From IMG/VR virus record IMGVR_UViG_3300048924_000226, positions 1 to 23,506 of that record: a DNA stretch of 23,506 nucleotides; one strand, given 5' to 3'. Position numbers and translations under genes: made by a program. Positions 4,256 to 23,506 of the stretch are shown here, piece by piece. Source of the DNA: a virus. Below the pieces are notes generated by a model, which was given only the letters and a program-made list of their open reading frames with translations, did not search any database and had not been told where the DNA came from. Every line of letters starts with the position of its first letter. Position 1 is the first letter of the stretch.

Positions 4256-6124
4256 TTAAGTTCGACTGCAGGAGGCGTAGACCGTACCGGCCGCTACGCC
4301 GCTGATGGAGCCCGACGTCGGGTTGATGGGGCGGATTGAAACCGTGCCATCCGTCAGCACTTGGCCGACAAGGATCAGCCCTTGCAGATCCGAAGAGAAG
4401 CTGACCTCGACTTTATCGCCCACCTTGCAGCCGCTCACGGTCAGGGTTGTTGCCGTACCAGCAGTAGCCGCGGCAACGGTCGGAATCGTCCATGTCTTGC
4501 TACCGGAGTTGACGACCCGGCCGAGCTGGACGTCCGTGTTGCCGCTCTGCACGAGCGGTTGGGACGTCGCGACGCCCGCCACCATATACTTGCTCTGGTA
4601 GAGTCCGATCTGCGGCCGGACGGCACCAGCCAAGCGGAAAAGGTTGGTGGCAAGGGTGGTGGCGCGGTCGTCGATGCTCCGCACCATGCCAATCTGCATA
4701 TCGATCGGGCTGTCGAGATAGATGTTATCGAAGAAATTGGACGTGACCGGATCGTAGTTCACGCAGTTGTTGTACGCGTCCACTTGCGCGCAACTGAGAC
4801 CGTTGATGTTGCCGCCGGTGATCCCGCGCGTGCCGTTGTACTCCGAAATCAAATAAGACGAGCGAAGGTTTTTCACACCGTTGATCGTAATGCCGGCCAG
4901 CTTGTTGTTGCGGGCGCGGGCAGACACTGTAGCCCCATCCAGATATTCCGCAGCGGTATTGTTGCCGCTGCCGATCAGGACGCCGCCGCCGACCGTCGTA
5001 CCGGAGACATCGATCGTGTAGCTGCCGCCGACCACGTTCTTGCCGATCCATGCCGCGAACTGGTTGCTTGCGCCGACACAGCCGACCAGGCTCATGTTTA
5101 CGTGACAGTCAGTGACCCCGTAGGTGTTGTAGCTCGTGTCTTTACTGACAAAGAGGGCGCCGTTGCCCTTGGCACCGTCGATGAGGCCGTCCACGCGGCA
5201 GTTTTGGGCACCCGCCAGTTTCACCCCGGCGAAGGTGCCGTTGTAAGCCAGTACACCCGTAATCACGATGTCCGAGCAAACATCACCCTTCGGAACATAG
5301 GACACGATGCTGACCTGATCGTCCCCATTGCTGATGCAAAGCGGGTTGCTGATCTGCGCGCGGACGACGGGGCCGGTGAATGACGCGCCGGACAGAATGC
5401 CGTTGGAGGAGTGGATGCCGTCCGCCAGACTGCCGATCACGATAGGGCTGATGATGCGGGCGTTCGTGCATTTGACGAGGCAGAGGCCCGCGCCGGGGCT
5501 GTTGATGGACACCGGACGGTCCAGAACCACGTTGTCCGCGCCGTTGTACACGCAGATGCTGGGAATATTCGTGCGGGAAATGGCGGGATCGGAGCAGCGC
5601 ACACGGGCGTTGCTGACGATCACGTTGCTCACGCCGACCCGAAGGAAGCCCGCATTCTTGTTGTTGAAGATCAGCTCGGCGCCGGGCTCGAAATACAGGT
5701 TGACAGACTTCAGGATATCGAGCTTGGCAGTGGTACCCGCCAACAGGAACGGGCGAGCCGGGAAATAGAGGGTGTCGCCGTCATTCGCGGCAGCATAGGC
5801 CGCAAGGATCTTGGCGAGGTCGTCGGTCGTCCCGTCACCCTTCGCGCCCTTGTCGAGGACGTTGATGCAGTGACCGCTTTCCGAGAACCGGTATCCGAGC
5901 GGGATGGCCGTGTCCCCACCGTAAGCAATGACATTGAGGGCGGACGCATCCGCGATAATGGCATCAAGGTTAGCTTGTACCGCGACAGCCGCCTCTTGGG
6001 CGGTATTGGCCGTCTGGATCGCCTGATTGGCTGCGGCAATGATTTCCGAGGGATCGAATGCGGGCACGCCCGGCGTCACCGGAGGGCCATCCGGTTGAAG
6101 CCGAGGGTCATCGCGCAAGCTCAT
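4256..6124 (-). CDS. Right-handed beta-helix tailspike (pectate-lyase-3 type)
   Basis: A 622-residue protein. Residues 1-60 contain a Pro-rich start and an Ala/Gln-rich helix (AAANQAIQTANTAQEAAVAV), probably a trimeric coiled coil that attaches to the tail. The block INVLDKGAKGDGTTDD (88-103) is the classical start of Pectate_lyase_3/beta-helix tailspikes. The rest to about residue 500 shows solenoid-like rungs rich in Asn, Gly, Val and Ile. The last 100 residues are a Gly/Thr/Val-rich beta domain ending YASCSRT. Such spikes bind and often cleave host surface polysaccharide; the substrate cannot be read from the sequence. Unlike its neighbours it has no signal peptide. It lies between the ejection proteins and the exported fibre-like genes. 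Confidence 0.85.
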   Translation of the reverse strand: MSLRDDPRLQPDGPPVTPGVPAFDPSEIIAAANQAIQTANTAQEAAVAVQANLDAIIADASALNVIAYGGDTAIPLGYRFSESGHCINVLDKGAKGDGTTDDLAKILAAYAAANDGDTLYFPARPFLLAGTTAKLDILKSVNLYFEPGAELIFNNKNAGFLRVGVSNVIVSNARVRCSDPAISRTNIPSICVYNGADNVVLDRPVSINSPGAGLCLVKCTNARIISPIVIGSLADGIHSSNGILSGASFTGPVVRAQISNPLCISNGDDQVSIVSYVPKGDVCSDIVITGVLAYNGTFAGVKLAGAQNCRVDGLIDGAKGNGALFVSKDTSYNTYGVTDCHVNMSLVGCVGASNQFAAWIGKNVVGGSYTIDVSGTTVGGGVLIGSGNNTAAEYLDGATVSARARNNKLAGITINGVKNLRSSYLISEYNGTRGITGGNINGLSCAQVDAYNNCVNYDPVTSNFFDNIYLDSPIDMQIGMVRSIDDRATTLATNLFRLAGAVRPQIGLYQSKYMVAGVATSQPLVQSGNTDVQLGRVVNSGSKTWTIPTVAAATAGTATTLTVSGCKVGDKVEVSFSSDLQGLILVGQVLTDGTVSIRPINPTSGSISGVAAGTVYASCSRT

Positions 6125-6168: not shown

Positions 6169-8157
6169 TCATGACACGCGCGCTTTCCGTTCCGCCCAAG
6201 CCAGCACCTGCGCGGCGGTCTTGTTCTTCAACACGGTCGGATTGGCCTTCACCGCATCGGCGCCGACGATCCGGAAAGCCGGAGTGTCCGGCTTGGCCTT
6301 GGCAAGGCGGGCCGCAACCGGGCCATCGAGGAAATGCGAAAGGTAGATCATGCCGTTTGTGGGCTGAATACCACGCTTGGCAAGCAGCTTGCCGTTCTGG
6401 TCAGCGTACTTGGCGACCATGCGGCGGGAAATCGACGGATCATCCCGAAGGGCGAGGATCTCGCGGGCGCTCTTGCCCTCCGCTTCCGGCTCGCCTCTCA
6501 TGAGCCCCAGCCAAGTGCTCTTGATGAACTGCCCTGCCCCGCGCGCGCTGCTTCGCGGGTTCTGCGCGTCGGCCCGGCCGTTGCTCTCGACCGAGATAAT
6601 GCGATCGACCACTTTGTCGGAAACAGGCTCAACCCTGATAGGCTGGCGGACAGTCACCGGCTGGGGACTTGGCTTCGGCCCACTATCGTTCGCGGCGCCC
6701 GGCATCACAGCAGAAGCAAGACCGCCCGTTGCCGCTGGCGCCGTGAACCCAGCCCCCGCCGCCTTTGGCGCGACAAGTCCGGATAGTGTGCCGAGTGCGT
6801 CCTCGGCCTGCCCTCGCGTAATCGCCTGAGACGCATAGCGGGCACCGGTAGCGCCAGCCGTTACCAGCCCGCCCGTCGCGGCGTCACCCGCCAGAGCGGT
6901 CGCACCACCCGTGACAAGCGGAATGACGTTGCCTGCCGGGTTCTTCAGGTCAATCCCTGCGCGCCCTGCGAAGCGAAGCCAGCTCTCGACACCGCCCTTC
7001 TGCGAAAGGCGCTTGAGTGCTTCCTTTTCGGCATCATTGAAGCCGCGCATGGCCTTCTTGTTGAGCAAGAGCAACCGCACTTGGTTCTTCAGAACGCCGG
7101 GCGTGTCGCCATAGCGTTCGACCAGGCTGCGGACTTTGTCGAAGCGGCGGTACTTGCCCCACTCCTGCCTCGCCTGTTTGAGCAAAGGGGCTGCGTCCGC
7201 ACCGCCAGAGGCAATATTCGACGCACCCAGCCGCTCAATATGAGAATCCAACGTGTCGATCAGGTTGAGCGCCTTCATCGCGTCGGGATTGATCTTGCCA
7301 GTCCCGTCCGTTCCCGTGGAAACGACATCGTTCAGCAGTTGCCGGTATTGGTCGGCCTCTTCAAGGCTTAGGGTCTTGCCTTTGAGGGCCTTAAGGTCTT
7401 GGAGGACGCTCAGGGTATTGCGGTGGAGGTCCGCATTGGTCTTTCCGCCCTCGCTGACCGCCTTTTCGAGGTCCGCAACCATCGCGTTGACGGTCTTCTT
7501 ATTAATAACCGCGCCGGCTTCGCGCATTTTCGTGTAGGTCGCTTGGGATTGCGCCTTGAGGCCATCTCCGATTTCCTGCCAAGCTTCCGGGCTCTTCGCG
7601 ATGGCGCCCTTGGCAACATCTTTTCCGGCCCGCGCCACCGCGCCGACGACCTCAGCACCTTTTTCAAGCGCCGGTGATGCCACAACGCCTGTTCCTAGGC
7701 CGATTAGGCCCTGCTCGGCACGGTCTTTCAGATTGCTCTGCTCCGAGGTGGCGCGGGTGAAGCCTTCCGCTGCGCCAGAGACACCAGCAAGAGCCGCGCG
7801 GCTAGCACGCGTCGCCGCCCCACCGGGAATTGCCAGTGCCGGAGCAACATCGCCGACGAAATTTCCGACTTCACCCGCCGTCCCGAGGCTCGCGACGTCG
7901 CGCTCAATCTTCTTTTTGACCTTGCTCGCCGCCTCACTGACGCCCTTGGCGCCGACGAGATCGGCACCCGCTTGGATCACACCAACGCCGCGTCCCGTCA
8001 GGCCGGCGCCAAACCCGATGAACGCCCGAGCAGCCTCGGGAAGATCAGATTGCTTGTCATCGCTCGGGGACGCCTCCTCTAGTTCGAACCCGTCCGGCAA
8101 TGGTGGCACCGGCTGGCTGTCCAGCTGGAAACCATCGGGAAGGGGCGGGATGTCCAT
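6169..8157 (-). CDS. Large ejection/internal virion protein with C-terminal lytic transglycosylase
   Basis: A 662-residue protein. The ATG at 8155-8157 overlaps the upstream TAA by one base (TAATG). The N-terminus contains two copies of PPLPDGFxL separated by a short linker. The central 400 residues are Ala/Gly/Lys-rich with amphipathic helices and several glycine-rich segments, as in proteins injected with the DNA. From about residue 516 there is an SLT-like domain: VVDRIISVESNG with the likely catalytic Glu at about 524, then GAGQFIKSTW and, near the end, MIYLSHFLDGP. This domain would open the peptidoglycan locally during DNA entry, as in T7 gp16 and related proteins. It is the last of three coupled ejection genes and would be carried in the virion. 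Confidence 0.82.
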   Translation of the reverse strand: MDIPPLPDGFQLDSQPVPPLPDGFELEEASPSDDKQSDLPEAARAFIGFGAGLTGRGVGVIQAGADLVGAKGVSEAASKVKKKIERDVASLGTAGEVGNFVGDVAPALAIPGGAATRASRAALAGVSGAAEGFTRATSEQSNLKDRAEQGLIGLGTGVVASPALEKGAEVVGAVARAGKDVAKGAIAKSPEAWQEIGDGLKAQSQATYTKMREAGAVINKKTVNAMVADLEKAVSEGGKTNADLHRNTLSVLQDLKALKGKTLSLEEADQYRQLLNDVVSTGTDGTGKINPDAMKALNLIDTLDSHIERLGASNIASGGADAAPLLKQARQEWGKYRRFDKVRSLVERYGDTPGVLKNQVRLLLLNKKAMRGFNDAEKEALKRLSQKGGVESWLRFAGRAGIDLKNPAGNVIPLVTGGATALAGDAATGGLVTAGATGARYASQAITRGQAEDALGTLSGLVAPKAAGAGFTAPAATGGLASAVMPGAANDSGPKPSPQPVTVRQPIRVEPVSDKVVDRIISVESNGRADAQNPRSSARGAGQFIKSTWLGLMRGEPEAEGKSAREILALRDDPSISRRMVAKYADQNGKLLAKRGIQPTNGMIYLSHFLDGPVAARLAKAKPDTPAFRIVGADAVKANPTVLKNKTAAQVLAWAERKARVS

Positions 8158-9494
8158 TATTGGGCGCGCACCCATTGACCGTTCTGCAGGATCAACCGTT
8201 CGCCCGTCTTCGGATTGCGGGCAGTCACGGGCGCGGAAGCGGCCGGGGATGCTTGCGTCGCGGACTGGCCTTCATAGGCCGTGTAGTCCATTGGCTCGTG
8301 GCCGAATTCCGCCCGCAACTGGTCGTTCTGCAGTTTCTTCAGTTCCGCCGAGCGGGCGTTGATACCGCGCAGCTCGGTGAGGCGGTCTTTGACGGCCTCG
8401 GTATCGAAGGGCGCGGCAAGGATGGCATCGGCGGCGCGCTGAGCGTCACCTTCCGTCTGCACGCCCTTGGCCAGAAGCAGGCTGTCATTGACCATCTTCT
8501 TGAGGTTGGACTGGTAGTTGGCCAGCGAGCGGCTTTGCGGAGTGCTGTGGCCAACATAGTTGGCAGCGGCAGAGACTGTGCGGTTAGCAAGGTCGGTTTT
8601 GAGCTGTCCGGAATCAATGTCTGCAAGGATCTTGTCGATGTTCGAGTTGGTTTGGCCGATCGTGCCGATGGCATCCAGCGCTTCCTGCTGCAGTTTTACC
8701 GCTGGCGCAGGCAACGGCTTCGGTTGCGGATTGGTCTTCGCATCAGCCTGCGCGCGGTAATTCGCGGCTTGCGCCTTTTCGGTATCGACCTGCGCATCCT
8801 TTAGCTCAAGAGTCTTATCAGCCAGCGCATTCTCTTGCCGGGTCGCGTAGCGCGCTTGATAAGCAGCCGGAGCGTAGGCTTTCAGGAGCGTATCAACCGG
8901 AACCGCCTCGCCGGACACAAGATTGCCCTGCCCGTCTTTCCCATACGGGATCATCACGTCCACACCGTTCATTTGGGTGAAGCGGGCGCCCTCGACCGGC
9001 GCGCCAAGGGTCGTGGACAGACGCTTGGCGCTTTCCGGATTCGAGGCCAGCCAGTTGCGGATACCGCTTTCGTCCCCAGCCGCGAGCTGGTCAATGGACT
9101 GAGCAAGCTGCGCGCCGGATACGGTTGCTTCCTGATGCGCGGCCAGCATCTGTTGCACTTCCGCCTGGTGCGTTTCGAGGTTCGCTTTATATTGAAGGAG
9201 CTGGTCGAGTTGCGCCTGCTTCTGGTCACGAATGGCCTGCGCTTTTTCAGACTTGCCAGACGCCACCGCGCCGGTCACACCCTTGAGGATGGCCGTGAGC
9301 GGCGTGAGCTGCCCCGGTTGGAACGCATCGGAAATCCCCTGCCACCGTTTGGCTGATACGTCTTCGCCGTTCGTGGCTTGTGCCGCCGTTTGGAGGGCAC
9401 CGGTAGGCAAATTATCGCCGCTGACCAGCTTGGCGAGGGATGCGAGACCGGAAAGCTCCGGCGTGCTGCCGACCGTGGTTGATAGTCCAGCCAT
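8157..9494 (-). CDS. Ejection/internal virion protein
   Basis: A 445-residue protein with its ATG at 9492-9494, overlapping the upstream stop (TAATG), preceded by GGGAGG eight bases before. It is predominantly helical, rich in Ala, Gln, Leu and Lys, with coiled-coil-like stretches (IRDQKQAQLDQLLQYKANLE; LELKDAQVDTEKAQAANYRA). The C-terminus ends in NPKTGERLILQNGQWVRAQ, a short motif I associate with phage DNA-ejection proteins. There is no signal peptide or membrane span. Its position between a smaller Ala/Gly-rich protein and the transglycosylase-bearing protein suits the middle member of a three-protein ejection set (P22 gp20- or T7 gp15-like role). The family assignment is by context. Confidence 0.7.
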   Translation of the reverse strand: MAGLSTTVGSTPELSGLASLAKLVSGDNLPTGALQTAAQATNGEDVSAKRWQGISDAFQPGQLTPLTAILKGVTGAVASGKSEKAQAIRDQKQAQLDQLLQYKANLETHQAEVQQMLAAHQEATVSGAQLAQSIDQLAAGDESGIRNWLASNPESAKRLSTTLGAPVEGARFTQMNGVDVMIPYGKDGQGNLVSGEAVPVDTLLKAYAPAAYQARYATRQENALADKTLELKDAQVDTEKAQAANYRAQADAKTNPQPKPLPAPAVKLQQEALDAIGTIGQTNSNIDKILADIDSGQLKTDLANRTVSAAANYVGHSTPQSRSLANYQSNLKKMVNDSLLLAKGVQTEGDAQRAADAILAAPFDTEAVKDRLTELRGINARSAELKKLQNDQLRAEFGHEPMDYTAYEGQSATQASPAASAPVTARNPKTGERLILQNGQWVRAQ

Positions 9495-10372
9495 TACGCC
9501 ATCCTCCCTGTATTCCAATAGACTTGATTGCCGAGGCCGGAGCCATAGTTTGCCCATCCGCCAGATGTCCCGGCCTTTGCCGCCGCACTACCGCCTGACG
9601 CCATGCTGAACAGACCGCCGCCGGTAAGGGCAAGGCTTGCGCCGCCGGTGAACGGAGCCGCAGCGATACCTGCGATGGTGGCAAGGTTATTGAAACCGGC
9701 CTGACTAGCTGCCGCTTTCGCTGCGTTGTTGGCACCGATCGTAGCGGCAACGCTGTTGTTGTAGTTCTGCTGGTTCTGCTGTTGAGAAAGGCCTGAGTTC
9801 ACAAGGCCAGCCAGTGAGTTAAGTTGGGTACCTTGCTGACCGTTCAGCGCCCCCGAGGCAAGGCTGTAAAGACTGCCTTGGCGGTTCAGCTCCTGCGAAC
9901 GCGCGTCCTGCTCGATGCCGGACATATCGCGAGCAAGCTGCGCCTTTTGATCCATGACCGTTCCGGCGCGCGCGATGCGGGCTTGGGCTCCGGCCGTGCT
10001 ATCAGCCTGACCATACCGGGCAAGCAGCTTTTCCTCGGCGTTGCCCGTCGCGACCGCGTTGTCGGTGATCGCCTTCGATTGCGTGGCCTGATAGTCCGTC
10101 AGGTACTGTTTCAGCCACGGGATGTCATCGACATTGTAATTGTTGGAGAGCTTGGTGATGTAGTCCAGCGAGCTTTGCTGGATCTGCTTGAAGGTATCCT
10201 GAAGCGCTTGGTCTTCAGCGGAGAGAGGCAGCGCGCTCCGAACGATTGTATAGGTACCGTCGGGCTGTTTGACGCGCTCAACCTTCGTTCCAGCAACGTC
10301 GTCAATTTGCGTCTCAAACTGAGCTTGTTCGGGGATAGGAGTCAGCGCTGCTTTTGGTTTACTGAGGCTCAC
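9494..10372 (-). CDS. Ejection/internal virion protein (P22 gp7- or T7 gp14-like role)
   Basis: A 292-residue protein with a GTG start (10370-10372), overlapping the end of the upstream acetyltransferase-like gene by 14 bases. The Shine-Dalgarno sequence is weak, so it may depend on coupling. The N-terminal third has a conserved-looking PDGTYTIVRSALP segment. The middle is Gln/Ala-rich and helical (QQQNQQNYNNS). The C-terminal part has a hydrophobic glycine/alanine segment (about 225-260: LATIAGIAAAPFTGG, LALTGGGLFSMASGG), as in small ejection proteins that enter the host membrane. It is followed by the two other ejection proteins through TAATG junctions. The role is inferred from order and composition. 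Confidence 0.65.
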   Translation of the reverse strand: MSLSKPKAALTPIPEQAQFETQIDDVAGTKVERVKQPDGTYTIVRSALPLSAEDQALQDTFKQIQQSSLDYITKLSNNYNVDDIPWLKQYLTDYQATQSKAITDNAVATGNAEEKLLARYGQADSTAGAQARIARAGTVMDQKAQLARDMSGIEQDARSQELNRQGSLYSLASGALNGQQGTQLNSLAGLVNSGLSQQQNQQNYNNSVAATIGANNAAKAAASQAGFNNLATIAGIAAAPFTGGASLALTGGGLFSMASGGSAAAKAGTSGGWANYGSGLGNQVYWNTGRMA

Positions 10373-10769
10373 TCATCGAGACTTTCCTTATAAGCGAATA
10401 ATAACTGATGCCGTCACGCTGGCAATACATTTGAAACCCATGCTTGCGCAGGAAGCGTCCGCACACCGGATTGTCGGTGGTGGCAGCTATCTGCGGATAG
10501 GACGCAAACGCGAAGCTGGCGATGGCGTTGAATGCCTCATCATCCAGCCAGTGACCGCGTTTTTCCGGTACGATCCACACGTTGCCCCAGCCGCAGTTCT
10601 TCCAATCCGGTTGCTCGCGAAGAGCGACAATCCCAATCGGCTTGCCGTCATCAAGGACAAGGACAGCGAACTGGCCGCCGCCCCAAATCTGGCAGAACTC
10701 CCGGGCTTCCTCATGCTGAAGCAGGCCCGTGTAGGCCAGCATGTCGAGGGTTGCGGGAATGAGCTTCAC
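10359..10769 (-). CDS. GNAT-like acetyltransferase
   Basis: A 136-residue protein starting at GTG, overlapping the upstream TAG by one base. It looks like a short GNAT fold: FAVLVLDDGKPIGIVALRE (strand pair), then NVWIVPEKRGHWLDDEAFNAI (strand, loop and helix region where acetyl-CoA binds, although the usual Q/RxxGxG/A is degenerate here) and ATTDNPVCGRFLRKHGFQ, the typical N..s..f..k.GF ending. Similar short GNAT-like genes are seen among structural genes of several podoviruses; their substrate is unknown. Possibilities are modification of a virion or host protein, or a non-catalytic structural role. The degenerate acetyl-CoA loop lowers confidence in activity. Confidence 0.65.
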   Translation of the reverse strand: MKLIPATLDMLAYTGLLQHEEAREFCQIWGGGQFAVLVLDDGKPIGIVALREQPDWKNCGWGNVWIVPEKRGHWLDDEAFNAIASFAFASYPQIAATTDNPVCGRFLRKHGFQMYCQRDGISYYSLIRKVSMSEPQ

Positions 10770-20034: not shown

Positions 20035-20423
20035 TCATCGGAGCTTCCCTTGGGCTTCACCAGCTTCACAATCAGTTCGCCGCGAGTGACCACCGGGTTA
20101 TCGCCCTGCCCACCAATATTGAGGGCTTGAGACGGCTTGCCTTCGAGGCGGTCGAAAACCCGATCAATGCTGGCAAGATCGCCGTTCTTCGCCATCGACA
20201 CCAGCTTGGCACAGATATGCTCAAGCTGCGTCACCTCATGCTCGACGCCTTCGTTATCGACAACGGTATCGGCTATGTTGAGGAGGTCGCGCAGTATGGT
20301 TTTGATATTGCGGGTACCGGGCTTCTTGCCCTCCGGGTTGCCGGACTTACCCTTGGGGAACGGCGTGCCGGTAGGCATCCCATCCGGACGGCGCTCCGCT
20401 GCTTTGCCGCTGCTCTTACTCAC
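20031..20423 (-). CDS. DUF5681 protein, terminase small subunit position
   Basis: A 130-residue protein. I chose the GTG at 20421-20423, seven bases after CAGGA; an upstream in-frame TTG at 20468 lacks a ribosome site. The N-terminus is polar and is followed by PFPKGKSGNPEGKKPGTRN (about 23-41), the clear DUF5681 signature. The C-terminal half is helical (QLEHICAKLVSMAKNGD; IDRVFDRLEGKPSQAL), similar to small terminase subunits. The 4-base overlap with the large subunit and first place in the late operon support the role of DNA recognition in packaging. DUF5681 proteins often occupy this place, although the biochemistry is not well described. Confidence 0.8.
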   Translation of the reverse strand: MSKSSGKAAERRPDGMPTGTPFPKGKSGNPEGKKPGTRNIKTILRDLLNIADTVVDNEGVEHEVTQLEHICAKLVSMAKNGDLASIDRVFDRLEGKPSQALNIGGQGDNPVVTRGELIVKLVKPKGSSDE

Positions 20424-20508
20424 ACCGGAATCCTGCCGCAGCTTTGTTAAGCTGGCAAGAAATACCAAAAAAGGACTAACTCAGGGATGTAGAGAATCGC
20501 AGGAACGT

Positions 20509-20521
20509 GAATTATATATTC
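20509..20521. promoter_or_regulatory. AT-rich near-palindrome in the divergent promoter region
   Basis: GAATTATATATTC lies in the gap between the divergent small terminase (start 20423) and lipoprotein (start 20569) genes. On the minus strand it contains TATAAT and on the plus strand TATATT, both possible -10 elements. A convincing -35 at 16-18 bases is not visible on either side, so activator dependence is possible. It is the best place for the late-operon promoter. Confidence 0.35.
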
Positions 20522-20568
20522 GACTGTAAATTGCTCTCGCAGTCCAATTCCCACATCGAAGGTCGAAA

Positions 20569-20913
20569 ATGCGCCAGAAGCTTCGTTATACTGCCCTTCT
20601 CTTGCCGCTGCTTTCCCTGTCTGCATGCTCCTCTGAAGCGTCAGCTGACGATATCGTCGGCAAATACACGTTCGATGAAGGGCATGGCACGATGTCCATG
20701 GAGTTCAAAGCAGATGGAACCGCTCCCGTCATCGCAGGCGGTGACGTCCTGAACACGTGGGAATGGAAGAAAACCGCGCCGGGCAAGCTCAGCCTGAAGA
20801 GCCCGAAGAGCAAAGATGTCACTTGCGATTACGAGAGCACCGAAAGCTCCCTCACTACCAAGAACTGCTCCGACCCCACGTTGAACCTCGTCTATACCAA
20901 GGTACCGAAATAA
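20569..20913 (+). CDS. Small lipoprotein (accessory gene)
   Basis: A 114-residue protein; the ATG follows GAAGG six bases upstream. Residues 1-20 are a lipoprotein signal (MRQKLRYTALLLPLLSLSAC) with lipobox LSAC and Cys20, and Ser at the next position predicts outer-membrane sorting. The mature part is a single small beta-rich domain (GKYTFDEGHGTMSMEFKADG; TWEWKKTAPGKLSLKS) with two further cysteines that could pair. It is transcribed opposite to the late operon and followed by a hairpin, as expected for an independently expressed accessory (moron) gene. Some phage lipoproteins block receptors against superinfection; that role here is only a guess. Confidence 0.72.
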   Translation: MRQKLRYTALLLPLLSLSACSSEASADDIVGKYTFDEGHGTMSMEFKADGTAPVIAGGDVLNTWEWKKTAPGKLSLKSPKSKDVTCDYESTESSLTTKNCSDPTLNLVYTKVPK

Positions 20914-20928
20914 CAACCAAGCTTGAAC

Positions 20929-20954
20929 GCTTGCCAGGCATCGACTTGGCAAGC
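20929..20954. terminator. Hairpin between convergent lipoprotein and Rap1a-like genes
   Basis: GCTTGCCA, 10-base loop, TGGCAAGC: a perfect 8-bp stem in the 46-base gap between two converging genes. It is followed on the plus strand by TCGTTCTATTT, a poor T run. It probably acts as a shared terminator, with weak efficiency judged from the tails. Confidence 0.55.
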
Positions 20955-20959
20955 TCGTT

Positions 20960-21361
20960 CTATTTGGAGCGGCAGGGCCACGCCTCTTCGAGAGAGCGCG
21001 CAAACAGGCTTTCCGAGGATTCCGCCCGTCTGGCGGGGTTCTCCTGCAGGTACTTGCAGAAAACGTCCGCGATCTGGCCTGCGCTGGCGTTGTCAGGCAG
21101 GCAGAAGCCGCGCGAGATGAACACGCCGAGGATCGCCTTCGGGGCCACCAGCTCGGCTGGGGTCTTGCCCTCGCGTTCGAACGTGGCTTCGACCGCGCCC
21201 TTGTCAGTCTCCCACTTGTCGATCCACCCGGCGATATAGCCGTGGACGAACGTCATGTTGTTCTGCTTGCACTGGCTGTGGACGAAATTGCCGTCCCAAA
21301 AGCCCGCATACGCGTTTGAAACCGAAGCGAGCAGCGCAACCGCCGCAAGATATTTCCGCAT
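20960..21361 (-). CDS. Secreted Rap1a/Tai-like protein
   Basis: A 133-residue protein. The ATG at 21359-21361 gives a complete signal peptide (MRKYLAAVALLASVSNAYA|G); the longer open frame upstream is not protein-like. The mature part has the Rap1a/Tai pattern: FVHGYIAGWIDKW (38-50), FCLPDNASAGQIADVFCKYL (86-105) and a C-terminal LEEAWPC. Four cysteines (31, 87, 102, 130) suit two disulphides. Rap1a and Tai proteins of type VI secretion systems are periplasmic immunity proteins that bind peptidoglycan amidases; the wider family is common in Proteobacteria with unknown targets. Here there is no T6SS gene nearby, so a periplasmic protective or exclusion role is inferred from the phage context only. 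Confidence 0.78.
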   Translation of the reverse strand: MRKYLAAVALLASVSNAYAGFWDGNFVHSQCKQNNMTFVHGYIAGWIDKWETDKGAVEATFEREGKTPAELVAPKAILGVFISRGFCLPDNASAGQIADVFCKYLQENPARRAESSESLFARSLEEAWPCRSK

Positions 21362-21476
21362 GGCCAGTCCCCAACCTGATTCAGCCGACCATAGCAAATA
21401 TCCGCTGGAGAACCAGCGCCCTCCACTTCCCAATCCACCGGGATTCGGGCAGTCATAGGTTGAGCTGGAGTTTGCC

Positions 21477-22388
21477 ATGGCGCCGAGGAAGCCGAAGAAG
21501 GATATGGACGGGGACGACGATATGCTTGAGGGAGCCGCACTATCCGCTGGAAAGGCCTTGGAGAAGGCTGGCGTGTGGAAGGCGCTGCTTCTCCCCGCCT
21601 CCAAGGTGCTTGGCGATTTCATGGGCAAGCGCACCCAGGAATGGGTGGACGGACTGGACGAGCGGCGCGCCAAGAACGTCGAAGCGCATTATGCGAAGAT
21701 GAAGACCATCGAGCATATCGAACCGCCGAAGAACGGTCCGACCGAACGGCAGTTCACGGCGCTGGTAGAATGGACAGCTGAGGCGCAGACGGTTGATCCC
21801 GAGGCTGAGCCGGAGCTTGCGGCATTGTGGCAGTCCCTGCTCGGTGACATCTACCGCAACGATCCTTACGCAGACGAGCTGGCGAGTATCCTCAAGAACA
21901 TGACGAGGGCTGATGCGCGGATGTTCCTTAACGGACGTTACCACCGCAAGCCCTTTATTCTCTTTCGCGAGATGGACCGCGACGACATCGGGCCGCCCTA
22001 TATCGAACGTTTTAAGCAATGGGGGCTCATAAGCCGCAGGATGGCGGTCGAGCGGATCACACTGATCTTGGCCGTCAGTTTTGTGGGCGGTACATCGGGG
22101 CTTCTTGCAAGTCGAGCGCCCTACTTCAAAGCCTTGTTATTTCCTTCGGGCGAATCCGCATCCGGGCTGTGGACGTGGTCGCTAGCCGTCACGATAGCCT
22201 CTCTCCTCGCCATCTTCATGTCCACCTTCATTATGGACATTGCCCGGATGGAGCTGACCCCGCTAGGCAGGAGGCTTTACTACAGTGGGCGGCGTTACCT
22301 TGACGCGCCCACGCCGCCGATAGCTCAGCCTGAGCCGCCCGAACCGGCCAAGCCCGCGCCGAAACGGGGACGGCCCAAGAAAGTCTGA
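21477..22388 (+). CDS. DUF4393/Abi-alpha-like protein with two membrane spans
   Basis: A 303-residue protein; the ATG follows GGAG six bases upstream. Residues 17-80 contain the helical start typical of Abi-alpha proteins (KALLLPASKVLGDFMGKRTQ, then an Arg/Lys/Asn-rich helix). The core PELAALWQSLLGDIYRNDPY (112-131) with ELASILKNMTRADARMFL is the clear DUF4393 block (xxLWaxLLaxxxdp...ILxxmtxxdA). Two hydrophobic segments follow (about 193-212 and 233-253), then ELTPLGRRLY and a Pro/Lys-rich tail ending PKRGRPKKV, which resembles an AT-hook core. DUF4393 is linked to abortive infection by family name; the mechanism is unknown. It converges with the TIR gene with a 2-base gap. Confidence 0.7.
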   Translation: MAPRKPKKDMDGDDDMLEGAALSAGKALEKAGVWKALLLPASKVLGDFMGKRTQEWVDGLDERRAKNVEAHYAKMKTIEHIEPPKNGPTERQFTALVEWTAEAQTVDPEAEPELAALWQSLLGDIYRNDPYADELASILKNMTRADARMFLNGRYHRKPFILFREMDRDDIGPPYIERFKQWGLISRRMAVERITLILAVSFVGGTSGLLASRAPYFKALLFPSGESASGLWTWSLAVTIASLLAIFMSTFIMDIARMELTPLGRRLYYSGRRYLDAPTPPIAQPEPPEPAKPAPKRGRPKKV

Positions 22389-22390
22389 CT

Positions 22391-23341
22391 TCACTCCGCC
22401 TTCTTGCCGGACCTTACTGCGCTGACCAACTGAGTGATAAGCGAATAGATCTGCGGGTCGATCTGCGACGGATCAAGCGTCGAGAAGGTCGAGTTGCGGT
22501 CGATATTCCAATGCTGGAATGCTTCCTTGACTTCCGAAGGCGTAAGCCTGTCGCCGTAGGCCTTGAGGAAGAATTTGCCGAACTGGATCGCGTGGATGCG
22601 GTCGGAGGACTTCAGGGACTCGCTCATGTACGACTTGCCGAGCGAGTAGGCGTATCTAGCGAGCGCCGCCAGAACCCCAACCATTACAATATTCAGGATC
22701 AGTAGCGAAATCGGCAGGATATAGCTCGCTTGTGCGACCGTATCGCCAGCCGTGATGACGGTGTGAATGGAGAACGCCGTCAAGCCGAGCACGGACAAAA
22801 GGAAAGCCACACCGGCAAAGTACCAGAAAATCGCCCATTTTCGGTGGTGATTTTCATAGGCTTGCTGCTGGGCAATTGCATCGGTTACGAAGTCTGAGAC
22901 GTCCTGTTTGACTTCTTCCAGGCGCTCAGTCTTTTGGCGTTTCTCCCTCTCGAAGAACTCAATACTGGTCAGTGCGTGTTGCACTGCCATATCTACGCGA
23001 TCGGCTCGAATAAAGCGAAGTCCCCGCATATCTGGTGCGAGGACAGTGTCGCTTGTACCGATCAGGATCGGTAATATGAGCATGGCTTCTTTGCCGTAAC
23101 GCCCCATAACATACCCAAGCTCGGAGATAAGGGGCGTGCCTTGAGGTGTGTTCGATGAAAAGAGCGGAATATAGACCTCCGCGTCGCGCATTGGTCCTTT
23201 GAAATCGCTTACCATCTGAGCAGTTGGACGCGGCCATACATTGTCATAGGCGACAACGTGGCCGTACTCGGCGAGCGATTTAGCCAACTCATCGGCGATC
23301 ATTCTATCGACTTTATCGAAGCTCAGATAAATTCTCGCCAC
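22391..23341 (-). CDS. TIR-domain protein with two membrane spans
   Basis: A 316-residue protein with a GTG start and GGGGGAT upstream. Residues 1-125 form a TIR-like domain: IYLSFDKVDRMIADELAKSL at the start, EVYIPLFSSNTPQG in the middle, and LISELGYVMGRYG, with Glu74 in the position of the catalytic glutamate of NAD-cleaving TIR enzymes. A charged coiled coil (about 125-165) links to two membrane spans (about 170-192 and 205-228). The C-terminal 85 residues are a cytoplasmic helical domain (RIHAIQFGKFFLKAYG, SEVKEAFQHWNI) that I do not recognise. TIR domains fused to membrane spans occur as effectors in bacterial immunity (for example in CBASS-type systems). No sensor or cyclase gene is visible in the window, so activation is unknown. 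Confidence 0.72.
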   Translation of the reverse strand: MARIYLSFDKVDRMIADELAKSLAEYGHVVAYDNVWPRPTAQMVSDFKGPMRDAEVYIPLFSSNTPQGTPLISELGYVMGRYGKEAMLILPILIGTSDTVLAPDMRGLRFIRADRVDMAVQHALTSIEFFEREKRQKTERLEEVKQDVSDFVTDAIAQQQAYENHHRKWAIFWYFAGVAFLLSVLGLTAFSIHTVITAGDTVAQASYILPISLLILNIVMVGVLAALARYAYSLGKSYMSESLKSSDRIHAIQFGKFFLKAYGDRLTPSEVKEAFQHWNIDRNSTFSTLDPSQIDPQIYSLITQLVSAVRSGKKAE

Positions 23342-23401
23342 AAGATCCCCCAGCGCGTTCTACCGGACCTTGTAGCGAGTCGATTACTAAAACAACTGCC
23401 G

Positions 23402-23506
23402 TTATGGGGCGACCGCAGCTATTTCGTTCTGGATGTCGATCACCTTCATGCTGACGGCGCCGATGGTCAGGCCGACGAGGAAGGCGACCGTGATGGCGTC
23501 GAATTT
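23402..23506 (-). CDS. C-terminus of a small membrane protein, cut by the window edge
   Basis: Reading from the right edge, 34 codons lead to a TAA at 23402-23404. The residues include FDAITVAFLVGLTIGAVSM, a hydrophobic span, followed by KVIDIQNEIAAVAP. It lies 60 bases before the TIR gene on the same strand, with no terminator between, so the two could be co-transcribed. The start is outside the window and function is unknown. Confidence 0.45.
   Translation of the reverse strand, partial: KFDAITVAFLVGLTIGAVSMKVIDIQNEIAAVAP

What the first reader, a model, noticed from the sequence alone, without database searches (positions are those of the whole stretch)
20960..21361. Phage-borne Rap1a/Tai-like periplasmic protein
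Seen: signal peptide, GYIAG motif, four cysteines and LEEAWPC end. Known: Rap1a and Tai bind and block T6SS peptidoglycan amidases. Inference: a phage copy could block cell-wall enzymes of competing phages or rival bacteria, acting as superinfection or competition protection for the lysogen.
Basis: partly seen in the sequence, partly recalled or inferred. Interest (0 to 1): 0.5.

Follow-up and report, generated by a model that had tools for sequence, protein, structure and literature searches.

The report
Phage-borne Rap1a-like periplasmic protein
A small secreted protein carried by a phage belongs to a family whose studied members block cell-wall-cutting toxins fired by rival bacteria; what the phage copy blocks, if anything, is not known.

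Summary
In detail: a 133-residue ORF on the minus strand (20960-21361) has a Sec-type signal peptide (by eye), GYIAG, four cysteines and a LEEAWPC end, and matches Pfam PF18602 (Rap1a) at E 3e-15. The window is a virus record with P22-type head genes, so the gene is phage-borne. It is a lone gene in an accessory stretch beside the terminase; 0 of 26 viral records found through the terminase carry it. No NlpC/P60 partner was found in the record. In 398 Pseudomonadota genomes, 1 of 47 family members sits beside a Tae4 gene, and 24 of 37 carrier genomes show no T6SS sheath gene, so membership alone does not mean T6SS immunity. On a tree the window protein groups with orphan genes on rhizobial plasmids, outside the T6SS-linked clade; an AU test does not exclude it from that clade. 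Rap1a's disulfide pair is kept, a second pair seems rewired (C31-C102 for C31-C39), and 0 of 9 compared effector-contact residues are kept. Best reading: a periplasmic inhibitor of an incoming wall-cutting enzyme, most likely a rival's Tae4-like amidase; target unproved.

The parts
20960..21361 (-). Rap1a-family gene, 133 aa, ATG at 21361, TAG at 20962-20960
21305..21361 (-). signal peptide, residues 1-19 (AYA before G20)
   Evidence: sequence read by eye
21101..21103 (-). Cys87, equivalent of Rap1a Cys78 (structural disulfide)
   Evidence: alignment, numbering from PMC3852654
20972..20974 (-). Cys130, equivalent of Rap1a Cys122
   Evidence: as for Cys87
21269..21271 (-). Cys31, predicted second-pair partner
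   Evidence: co-occurrence counts, (inference)
21056..21058 (-). Cys102, predicted partner of Cys31 in this lineage
   Evidence: co-occurrence counts, (inference)
21065..21094 (-). residues 90-99 (DNASAGQIAD), aligned with Rap1a 81-90, which meets the effector's active site
20918..20954 (.). terminator-like hairpins, one on each strand, between the convergent lipoprotein-like and Rap1a genes
   Evidence: folds (z -2.75 and -2.14)
21403..21418 (-). terminator-like hairpin just upstream of the Rap1a gene
   Evidence: consensus match only
20569..20913 (+). lipoprotein-like neighbour, 114 aa, no family match over a cut-off
   Evidence: lipobox by eye
21477..22388 (+). 303-aa neighbour, probably membrane-bound (by eye), no family match
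22391..23341 (-). 316-aa neighbour, TIR-like N-terminus (below cut-off) plus membrane module shared with phrog_2628

Best explanation
The gene is an accessory ('moron'-type) gene of a P22-type phage. Its product is secreted to the periplasm, folds as a Rap1a-type helical bundle held by a disulfide, and blocks the active-site cleft of a peptidoglycan-cutting enzyme that reaches the periplasm from outside, protecting the infected or lysogenic cell. The likeliest target is a Tae4-like amidase injected by a neighbour's type VI secretion system, which makes the gene an orphan immunity gene carried by a phage. Shown: family, phage location, the kept Cys87/Cys130 pair, lone-gene layout. By eye: signal peptide. 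Inferred: secretion, dimer, inhibition, nature of the target.
For: PF18602 well over cut-off; a profile of relatives finds Rap1a-fold immunity proteins first in the PDB (6ijf E 9e-5, 4bi8 0.013; next, unrelated row 0.32); the model's best structural rows are the same entries; Cys78-Cys122 of Rap1a kept as Cys87-Cys130. Lone gene with terminator-like hairpins, accessory position. Precedents: orphan Tai4-type gene in the S. Typhi immunity islet (PMC7400221, passages); T6SS toxin/immunity clusters on Ralstonia prophages (PMC11481896, passages). The paired AtTae4-AtTai4 is alphaproteobacterial (PMC6277958, passages), as are the plasmid relatives.
Against: No cognate effector in the record; 1 of 47 chromosomal members is beside Tae4; 24 of 37 carrier genomes show no VipB (assemblies may be incomplete), though orphan immunity would look like that too; window outside the 98/98 T6SS clade, AU p 0.145; 0 of 9 contact residues identical, though AtTai4 also lacks Gln84. 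Model mean pLDDT 69; the tool warns that Z of about 8 can be chance for helical bundles. No promoter-like site was found before the gene.
Confidence: 0.42

Rival explanations
1. Superinfection exclusion by the T4 Spackle principle: the protein waits in the periplasm and inhibits the wall-cutting enzyme of an incoming rival phage.
For: Spackle is a small phage-encoded periplasmic helical protein with a disulfide that inhibits the gp5 tail lysozyme (PMC7677548, passages). Window gene lies beside a TIR-like and a lipoprotein-like gene; a relative has a SIR2-like gene near the terminase. In Microcystis phages the copy overlaps an HTH gene ahead of replication genes, an early-type place.
Against: No Rap1a-fold protein is known to me to inhibit a lysozyme or transglycosylase; this phage's own recognised wall enzyme is transglycosylase-like. 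No homology to Spackle tested.
Confidence: 0.2
2. Control of host or own wall hydrolases: the protein holds a host amidase or endopeptidase in check, for example to time lysis.
For: Most family members are lone chromosomal genes away from Tae4 (46 of 47), which fits a house target; the aligned plug segment is more uniform among mobile-element rows.
Against: Gene is not with the holin-like end of the record (1512-1736) but some 19 kb away; 0 of 26 terminase-related records have it; the 15 rows were gathered by likeness to the window.
Confidence: 0.15
3. A general periplasmic binding protein or chaperone of HdeA type with no wall-enzyme target; 'immunity' in the name is inherited from the few studied pairs.
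For: HdeA is the next structural row (VIA Z 5.5, 75 residues, 4% identity); 1 of 47 surveyed members has a Tae4 neighbour.
Against: The rows above it are all Rap1a-fold (Z 7.6-8.2), and the sequence profile finds Rap1a-fold proteins, not HdeA.
Confidence: 0.13

Closest known systems
Rap1a of Serratia marcescens (PDB 3zfi, 4bi8), PF18602
   Same: Pfam family, signal peptide, Cys78-Cys122 pair, probable fold
   Different: Window: no effector partner, 0 of 9 compared contact residues, two further cysteines, longer middle stretch, phage-borne
AtTai4 of Agrobacterium tumefaciens (PDB 6ije, 6ijf)
   Same: Best sequence-profile match in the PDB; Rap1a fold; from a rhizobial-type host
   Different: Paired with AtTae4; lies in the T6SS clade of the tree
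phrog_3870 (phage proteins, unknown function)
   Same: Window protein, three other phage copies and rhizobial plasmid copies match it
   Different: No function attached; link to PF18602 made here
Orphan 'Rap1a/Tai family immunity protein' genes on rhizobial plasmids
   Same: Nearest rows of the tree; share C31, C87, C102
   Different: On plasmids; 29-33% identity in tblastn for the five with full-length matches
T4 Spackle (gp61.3)
   Same: Works-like analogue: small phage-encoded periplasmic helical protein with a disulfide that inhibits a wall-cutting enzyme
   Different: No homology shown; target is a lysozyme; acts allosterically (PMC7677548, passages)

Membership tests
Rap1a family (PF18602) | Profile match over the curated cut-off | tested here: met
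   56.8 bits against 27.7
Rap1a family (PF18602) | Sec signal peptide | tested here: met
   By eye only; no predictor run
Rap1a family (PF18602) | Disulfide-forming pair equivalent to Cys78-Cys122 | tested here: met
   Cys87 and Cys130 align; bond itself not testable here
Rap1a family (PF18602) | Rap1a helical fold | tested here: inconclusive
   Model mean pLDDT 69; Foldseek E 0.046 at best; VIA Z 8.0-8.2 to Rap1a-fold entries, which the tool calls possibly chance for helical bundles
T6SS immunity protein of Rap1a type (Tai4a) | Adjacent Tae4-type effector gene | tested here: not met
   No Tae4 among 23 of 28 window ORFs given to Pfam; no NlpC/P60 in six frames
T6SS immunity protein of Rap1a type (Tai4a) | Effector-contact residues of Rap1a | tested here: not met
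   0 of 9 compared identical; 3 of 12 not compared; not strict, as AtTai4 lacks Gln84 too
T6SS immunity protein of Rap1a type (Tai4a) | Place in the T6SS-linked clade | tested here: inconclusive
   Clade 98/98 without the window; AU p 0.145
T6SS immunity protein of Rap1a type (Tai4a) | Inhibition of a Tae4 amidase; dimer | not testable with these tools
   Needs protein work
Classical Tai4 (Rap2a, EcTai4, StTai4) | Tai4 fold with protruding loop | tested here: inconclusive
   No such entry among the listed rows; the paper calls the two folds distinct
Spackle-type superinfection exclusion | Homology to gp61.3 and inhibition of a particle lysozyme | not tested
   Likeness in size, place, helices and disulfide only, from passages of PMC7677548

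The most novel reading that the evidence does not exclude
The phage and plasmid branch of the Rap1a family (phrog_3870 plus rhizobial plasmid copies) is not T6SS immunity but a mobile-element defence: it blocks the wall-cutting enzymes that rival phages or conjugating plasmids use on entry, by a plug segment (P-D/K-N-x-T/S-x-G-Q-x-x-D) that stays uniform because the target is uniform, with the second disulfide rewired from C31-C39 to C31-C102 in one lineage.
Probability: 0.17. Interest if true: 0.65.

Novelty: new member of a known kind. Interest (0 to 1): 0.36.

Why it matters
It gives a family label and a testable mechanism to a phage protein family listed as 'unknown function' (phrog_3870). 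It also shows that the label 'Rap1a/Tai family immunity protein', now spread to lone rhizobial genes by annotation, rests on a small T6SS-linked corner of the family: 1 of 47 surveyed chromosomal members sits next to Tae4. If phage or plasmid copies do block wall-cutting enzymes, protection from rival bacteria, or from rival mobile elements, would be a cargo that phages carry.

Tried and rejected
Plus-strand reading of 20960-21361 holds a stop (returned as an error).

Close relatives in IMG/VR: a scan with the window protein alone found none; alignments A1 and A2 found only the DSL-LC04-like group (6 loci in all); the rhizobial-type alignment A5 found none. The genome-contig scan found one relative.

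Prophage location of chromosomal members: terminase PF03237 and portal PF04860 in the 37 carrier genomes; by the listed coordinates 0 of 47 Rap1a places lie within 45 kb of either (nearest about 50 kb, G365, a weak hit). Two markers only, and many contigs are short, so prophages can be missed.

A recurrent neighbour as partner: all-against-all blastp of 510 ORFs around 38 chromosomal and 6 plasmid copies plus the window; besides Rap1a itself the largest group spans 5 loci, and none was shared with the window. The groups were not annotated by a library.

NlpC/P60 partner in phages: 0 of 5 Rap1a-bearing records (ENT47670 not included). Tae4 (PF14113) was not sought in six frames in the phage records.

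One clade of all viral copies: not in the tree (4 changes); AU p 0.061, undecided.

Spackle and classical Tai4 are not in the fold lists; that proves nothing.

Host: not established. Plasmid matches are Alphaproteobacteria in 14 of 14 records (the rank of Tritonibacter recalled), a hint only.

Not in print, as far as searched (PMC library; listings only): 'rap1a + phage' 39 papers, 20 listed; 'Tai4 + prophage' 9; 'Tae4 + bacteriophage + immunity protein' 35, 20 listed; 'rap1a + prophage' 1, unrelated; 'T6SS + bacteriophage + phage-encoded immunity' 0. No title or abstract start listed was about a phage-borne Rap1a. The DSL-LC04 paper PMC10611076 has no 'Tai4', 'amidase' or 'type VI' in its main text, though the GenBank record labels the gene so.

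Mended since: distance of VipB in G072 (6.4 kb), the record's end class (not shown by the tool), the wording on recurrent neighbours and on the fold test.

Full report
What is there. The ORF at 20960-21361 is on the minus strand and encodes 133 residues: signal peptide by eye, GYIAG at 41-45, cysteines at 31, 87, 102 and 130, LEEAWPC near the end. Pfam gives one family, PF18602 Rap1a, E 3.3e-15, 56.8 bits (cut-off 27.7). PHROGs gives phrog_3870, unknown function, E 1.4e-15. NCBIfam and PADLOC give nothing.

Where it lies. The window is a virus record of 23506 bases with terminase, P22-like portal and capsid, a holin-like gene (1512-1736, phrog_297 E 3e-5), DUF5675, a pectate-lyase-like protein (4256-6124) and a protein with a transglycosylase-like end (6169-8175, phrog_4067 E 3e-23; no Pfam match). 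Right of the small terminase the genes alternate in strand: lipoprotein-like ORF (+), Rap1a (-), 303-aa protein (+), TIR-like membrane protein (-). Terminator-like hairpins lie between the lipoprotein-like and Rap1a genes on both strands and just upstream of Rap1a; the stretch 20400-23506 has 7 such sites against a mean of 2.6 (sd 1.6) in shuffles (folds). One promoter-like site was found (1.7 expected), none before Rap1a; if the upstream hairpin is real, little room is left for a promoter. GC of the gene is 0.617, of the record 0.595. Of 26 viral records found by the terminase, 0 carry Rap1a. Many are fragments, but the two nearest, L012 and L013, hold 6 kb upstream of the terminase and lack it; L013 has a SIR2-like protein there (SIR2_2 23.8 bits, cut-off 24.5). 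An integrase was found in 3 of 17 records, L013's among them, not in the window.

Relatives. In 50,697 phage records, six tblastn queries found members in 5 records: Microcystis phages Mwe-JY25 and JY07 (same gene), metagenome-assembled phage DSL-LC04 (labelled 'type VI amidase', note Tai4), and Cronobacter phage ENT47670 (two records), where the gene is unannotated and antisense, next to a 'phage head morphogenesis' gene (PF18602 60.9 bits). IMG/VR added six DSL-LC04-like loci. In 72,556 plasmid records 14 match, 13 of them Rhizobiaceae. In the six plasmid neighbourhoods read no T6SS or Tae4 gene is annotated; one copy is next to a SIR2 family gene. The plasmid gene tables are incomplete by the tool's own note.

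Survey. PF18602 was sought in 398 Pseudomonadota genomes: 37 have a match (33 over the cut-off), 47 places. Among those 37, Tae4 (PF14113) occurs in 4 and stands beside a Rap1a gene at 1 of 47 places (G072 contig 557, with VipB about 6.4 kb away). VipB occurs in 13 of 37. Prophage markers PF03237 and PF04860 lie near 0 of 47. So most members are lone chromosomal genes. Orphan immunity would look like this too, so the survey weakens the automatic 'T6SS immunity' label without refuting it. Completeness of the genomes is not given.

Tree. 46 rows: 7 viral, 6 plasmid, 31 chromosomal (of 47), 2 PDB segments; 94 columns. The T6SS-linked rows (Rap1a, AtTai4, the Tae4 neighbour of G072) and one further row, G123, form a clade at 98/98. 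The window falls with five plasmid rows (93/85), inside a weak set of 19 rows (82/86) that holds all viral and plasmid copies and six chromosomal ones. No starred branch holds the window, and the bootstrap had not settled. AU tests: window inside the T6SS clade p 0.145; all viral rows together 0.061; window plus all plasmid rows 0.575.

Structure. A profile of 11 relatives matches Rap1a-fold immunity proteins first in the PDB (E 9e-5 and 0.013; next row, unrelated, 0.32); the window sequence alone finds nothing significant. The AF2 model from 7 sequences has mean pLDDT 69, pTM 0.61, residues 91-130 at 82-94. Foldseek ranks 1-7 are Rap1a and AtTai4, at weak E 0.046-0.6; VIA gives Z 8.2 to 7.6 for the same entries and 5.5 for HdeA, values which the tool says can be chance for helical bundles. 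Taken with the sequence matches they agree. Rap1a and classical Tai4 have different folds (PMC3852654).

Cysteines. C87 and C130 match the Rap1a disulfide Cys78-Cys122. Of 44 non-PDB rows, 35 have a cysteine at column 31: 26 of these have one at column 39 (read over columns 38-40) and none at 102; 8 have one at 102 and none at 39; 0 have both; 1 has neither (Fisher p 4e-7, overstated because rows are related). Of the 9 rows without C31, 3 have a gap there (rows cut short); 8 of 9 lack both partners, the ninth (G229, gap) has C39. The simple reading: C31 bonds with C39 in most of the family and with C102 in the window, the six plasmid rows and the Microcystis phage. This is inference from co-occurrence.

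Plug. In the Ssp1-Rap1a complex twelve Rap1a residues contact the effector, and Gln84 bonds to its catalytic histidine. Nine of the twelve can be compared; in the window they are D90, N91, S93, A94, G95, Q96, D99, K103 and A127, 0 of 9 identical. AtTai4 has Ala for Gln84 (PMC6277958, passages). Among 15 mobile-element-type rows (13 viral and plasmid, plus L011 and L044) position 93 is Thr/Ser in 13, 96 is Gln in 13, 99 is Asp in 12; in 27 other rows 13, 9 and 7; in 4 T6SS-clade rows 0, 0 and 3. The 15 rows were gathered by likeness to the window and four are near-copies, so part of this is built in.

Mechanism and rivals. The family's studied members sit in the periplasm and block NlpC/P60-type amidases sterically. 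An orphan, phage-carried version that shields the cell from rivals' amidases is the most economical reading (0.42); S. Typhi's immunity islet with an orphan Tai4 (PMC7400221, passages) and Ralstonia prophages with T6SS toxin clusters (PMC11481896, passages) are precedents in kind. A Spackle-like block of incoming phage (0.2) has a precedent (PMC7677548, passages), but this phage's recognised wall enzyme is transglycosylase-like. Host hydrolase control (0.15) and a chaperone-like role (0.13) remain open.

Verdict. Observation confirmed; interpretation partly supported; new member of a known kind. Side results: the link between phrog_3870 and PF18602, the rarity of Tae4 pairing, and the apparent swap of the second disulfide.

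Noticed in passing
L079:3854-4180 (+), Cronobacter phage ENT47670 (HQ201308): Unannotated Rap1a-family ORF (PF18602, 60.9 bits), antisense to its neighbours, beside a 'phage head morphogenesis' gene.
   Followed up: partly
L004:7872-8198, phage DSL-LC04: Gene labelled 'type VI amidase' (note Tai4) is a Rap1a-type immunity-family protein, not an amidase.
   Followed up: yes
window 22391-23341 (-): TIR-like N-terminus (PF13676 24.6 bits, cut-off 28) joined to a membrane module; L119 (4656-5639) carries the same module with a coiled-coil-like front instead.
   Followed up: partly
window 21477-22388 (+): 303-aa protein, probably with two membrane helices by eye; no match in Pfam, PHROGs, NCBIfam, PADLOC or plasmids.
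   Followed up: no
window 20569-20913 (+): Lipoprotein-like ORF (lipobox by eye) with a strong terminator-like hairpin behind it and no family match over a cut-off.
   Followed up: no
L013:3358-4332 (-): SIR2-like protein upstream of the terminase in a relative of this phage, just under the SIR2_2 cut-off.
   Followed up: partly
L077:4651-6342: On a Rhizobium ruizarguesonis plasmid the Rap1a copy follows a SIR2 family gene; the copy lacks the last cysteine and the tblastn match starts before the annotated start, so it may be broken.
   Followed up: no
L097, L100, L103, L105, L111: Five chromosomal Rap1a copies lie next to one glycine-rich lipoprotein-like gene; L082, L087, L089, L093 lie next to a gene that looks like purS by eye.
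   Followed up: no
window 10359-10769 (-): GNAT acetyltransferase (PF00583, 22.3 bits, cut-off 20.7) among the structural genes.
   Followed up: no
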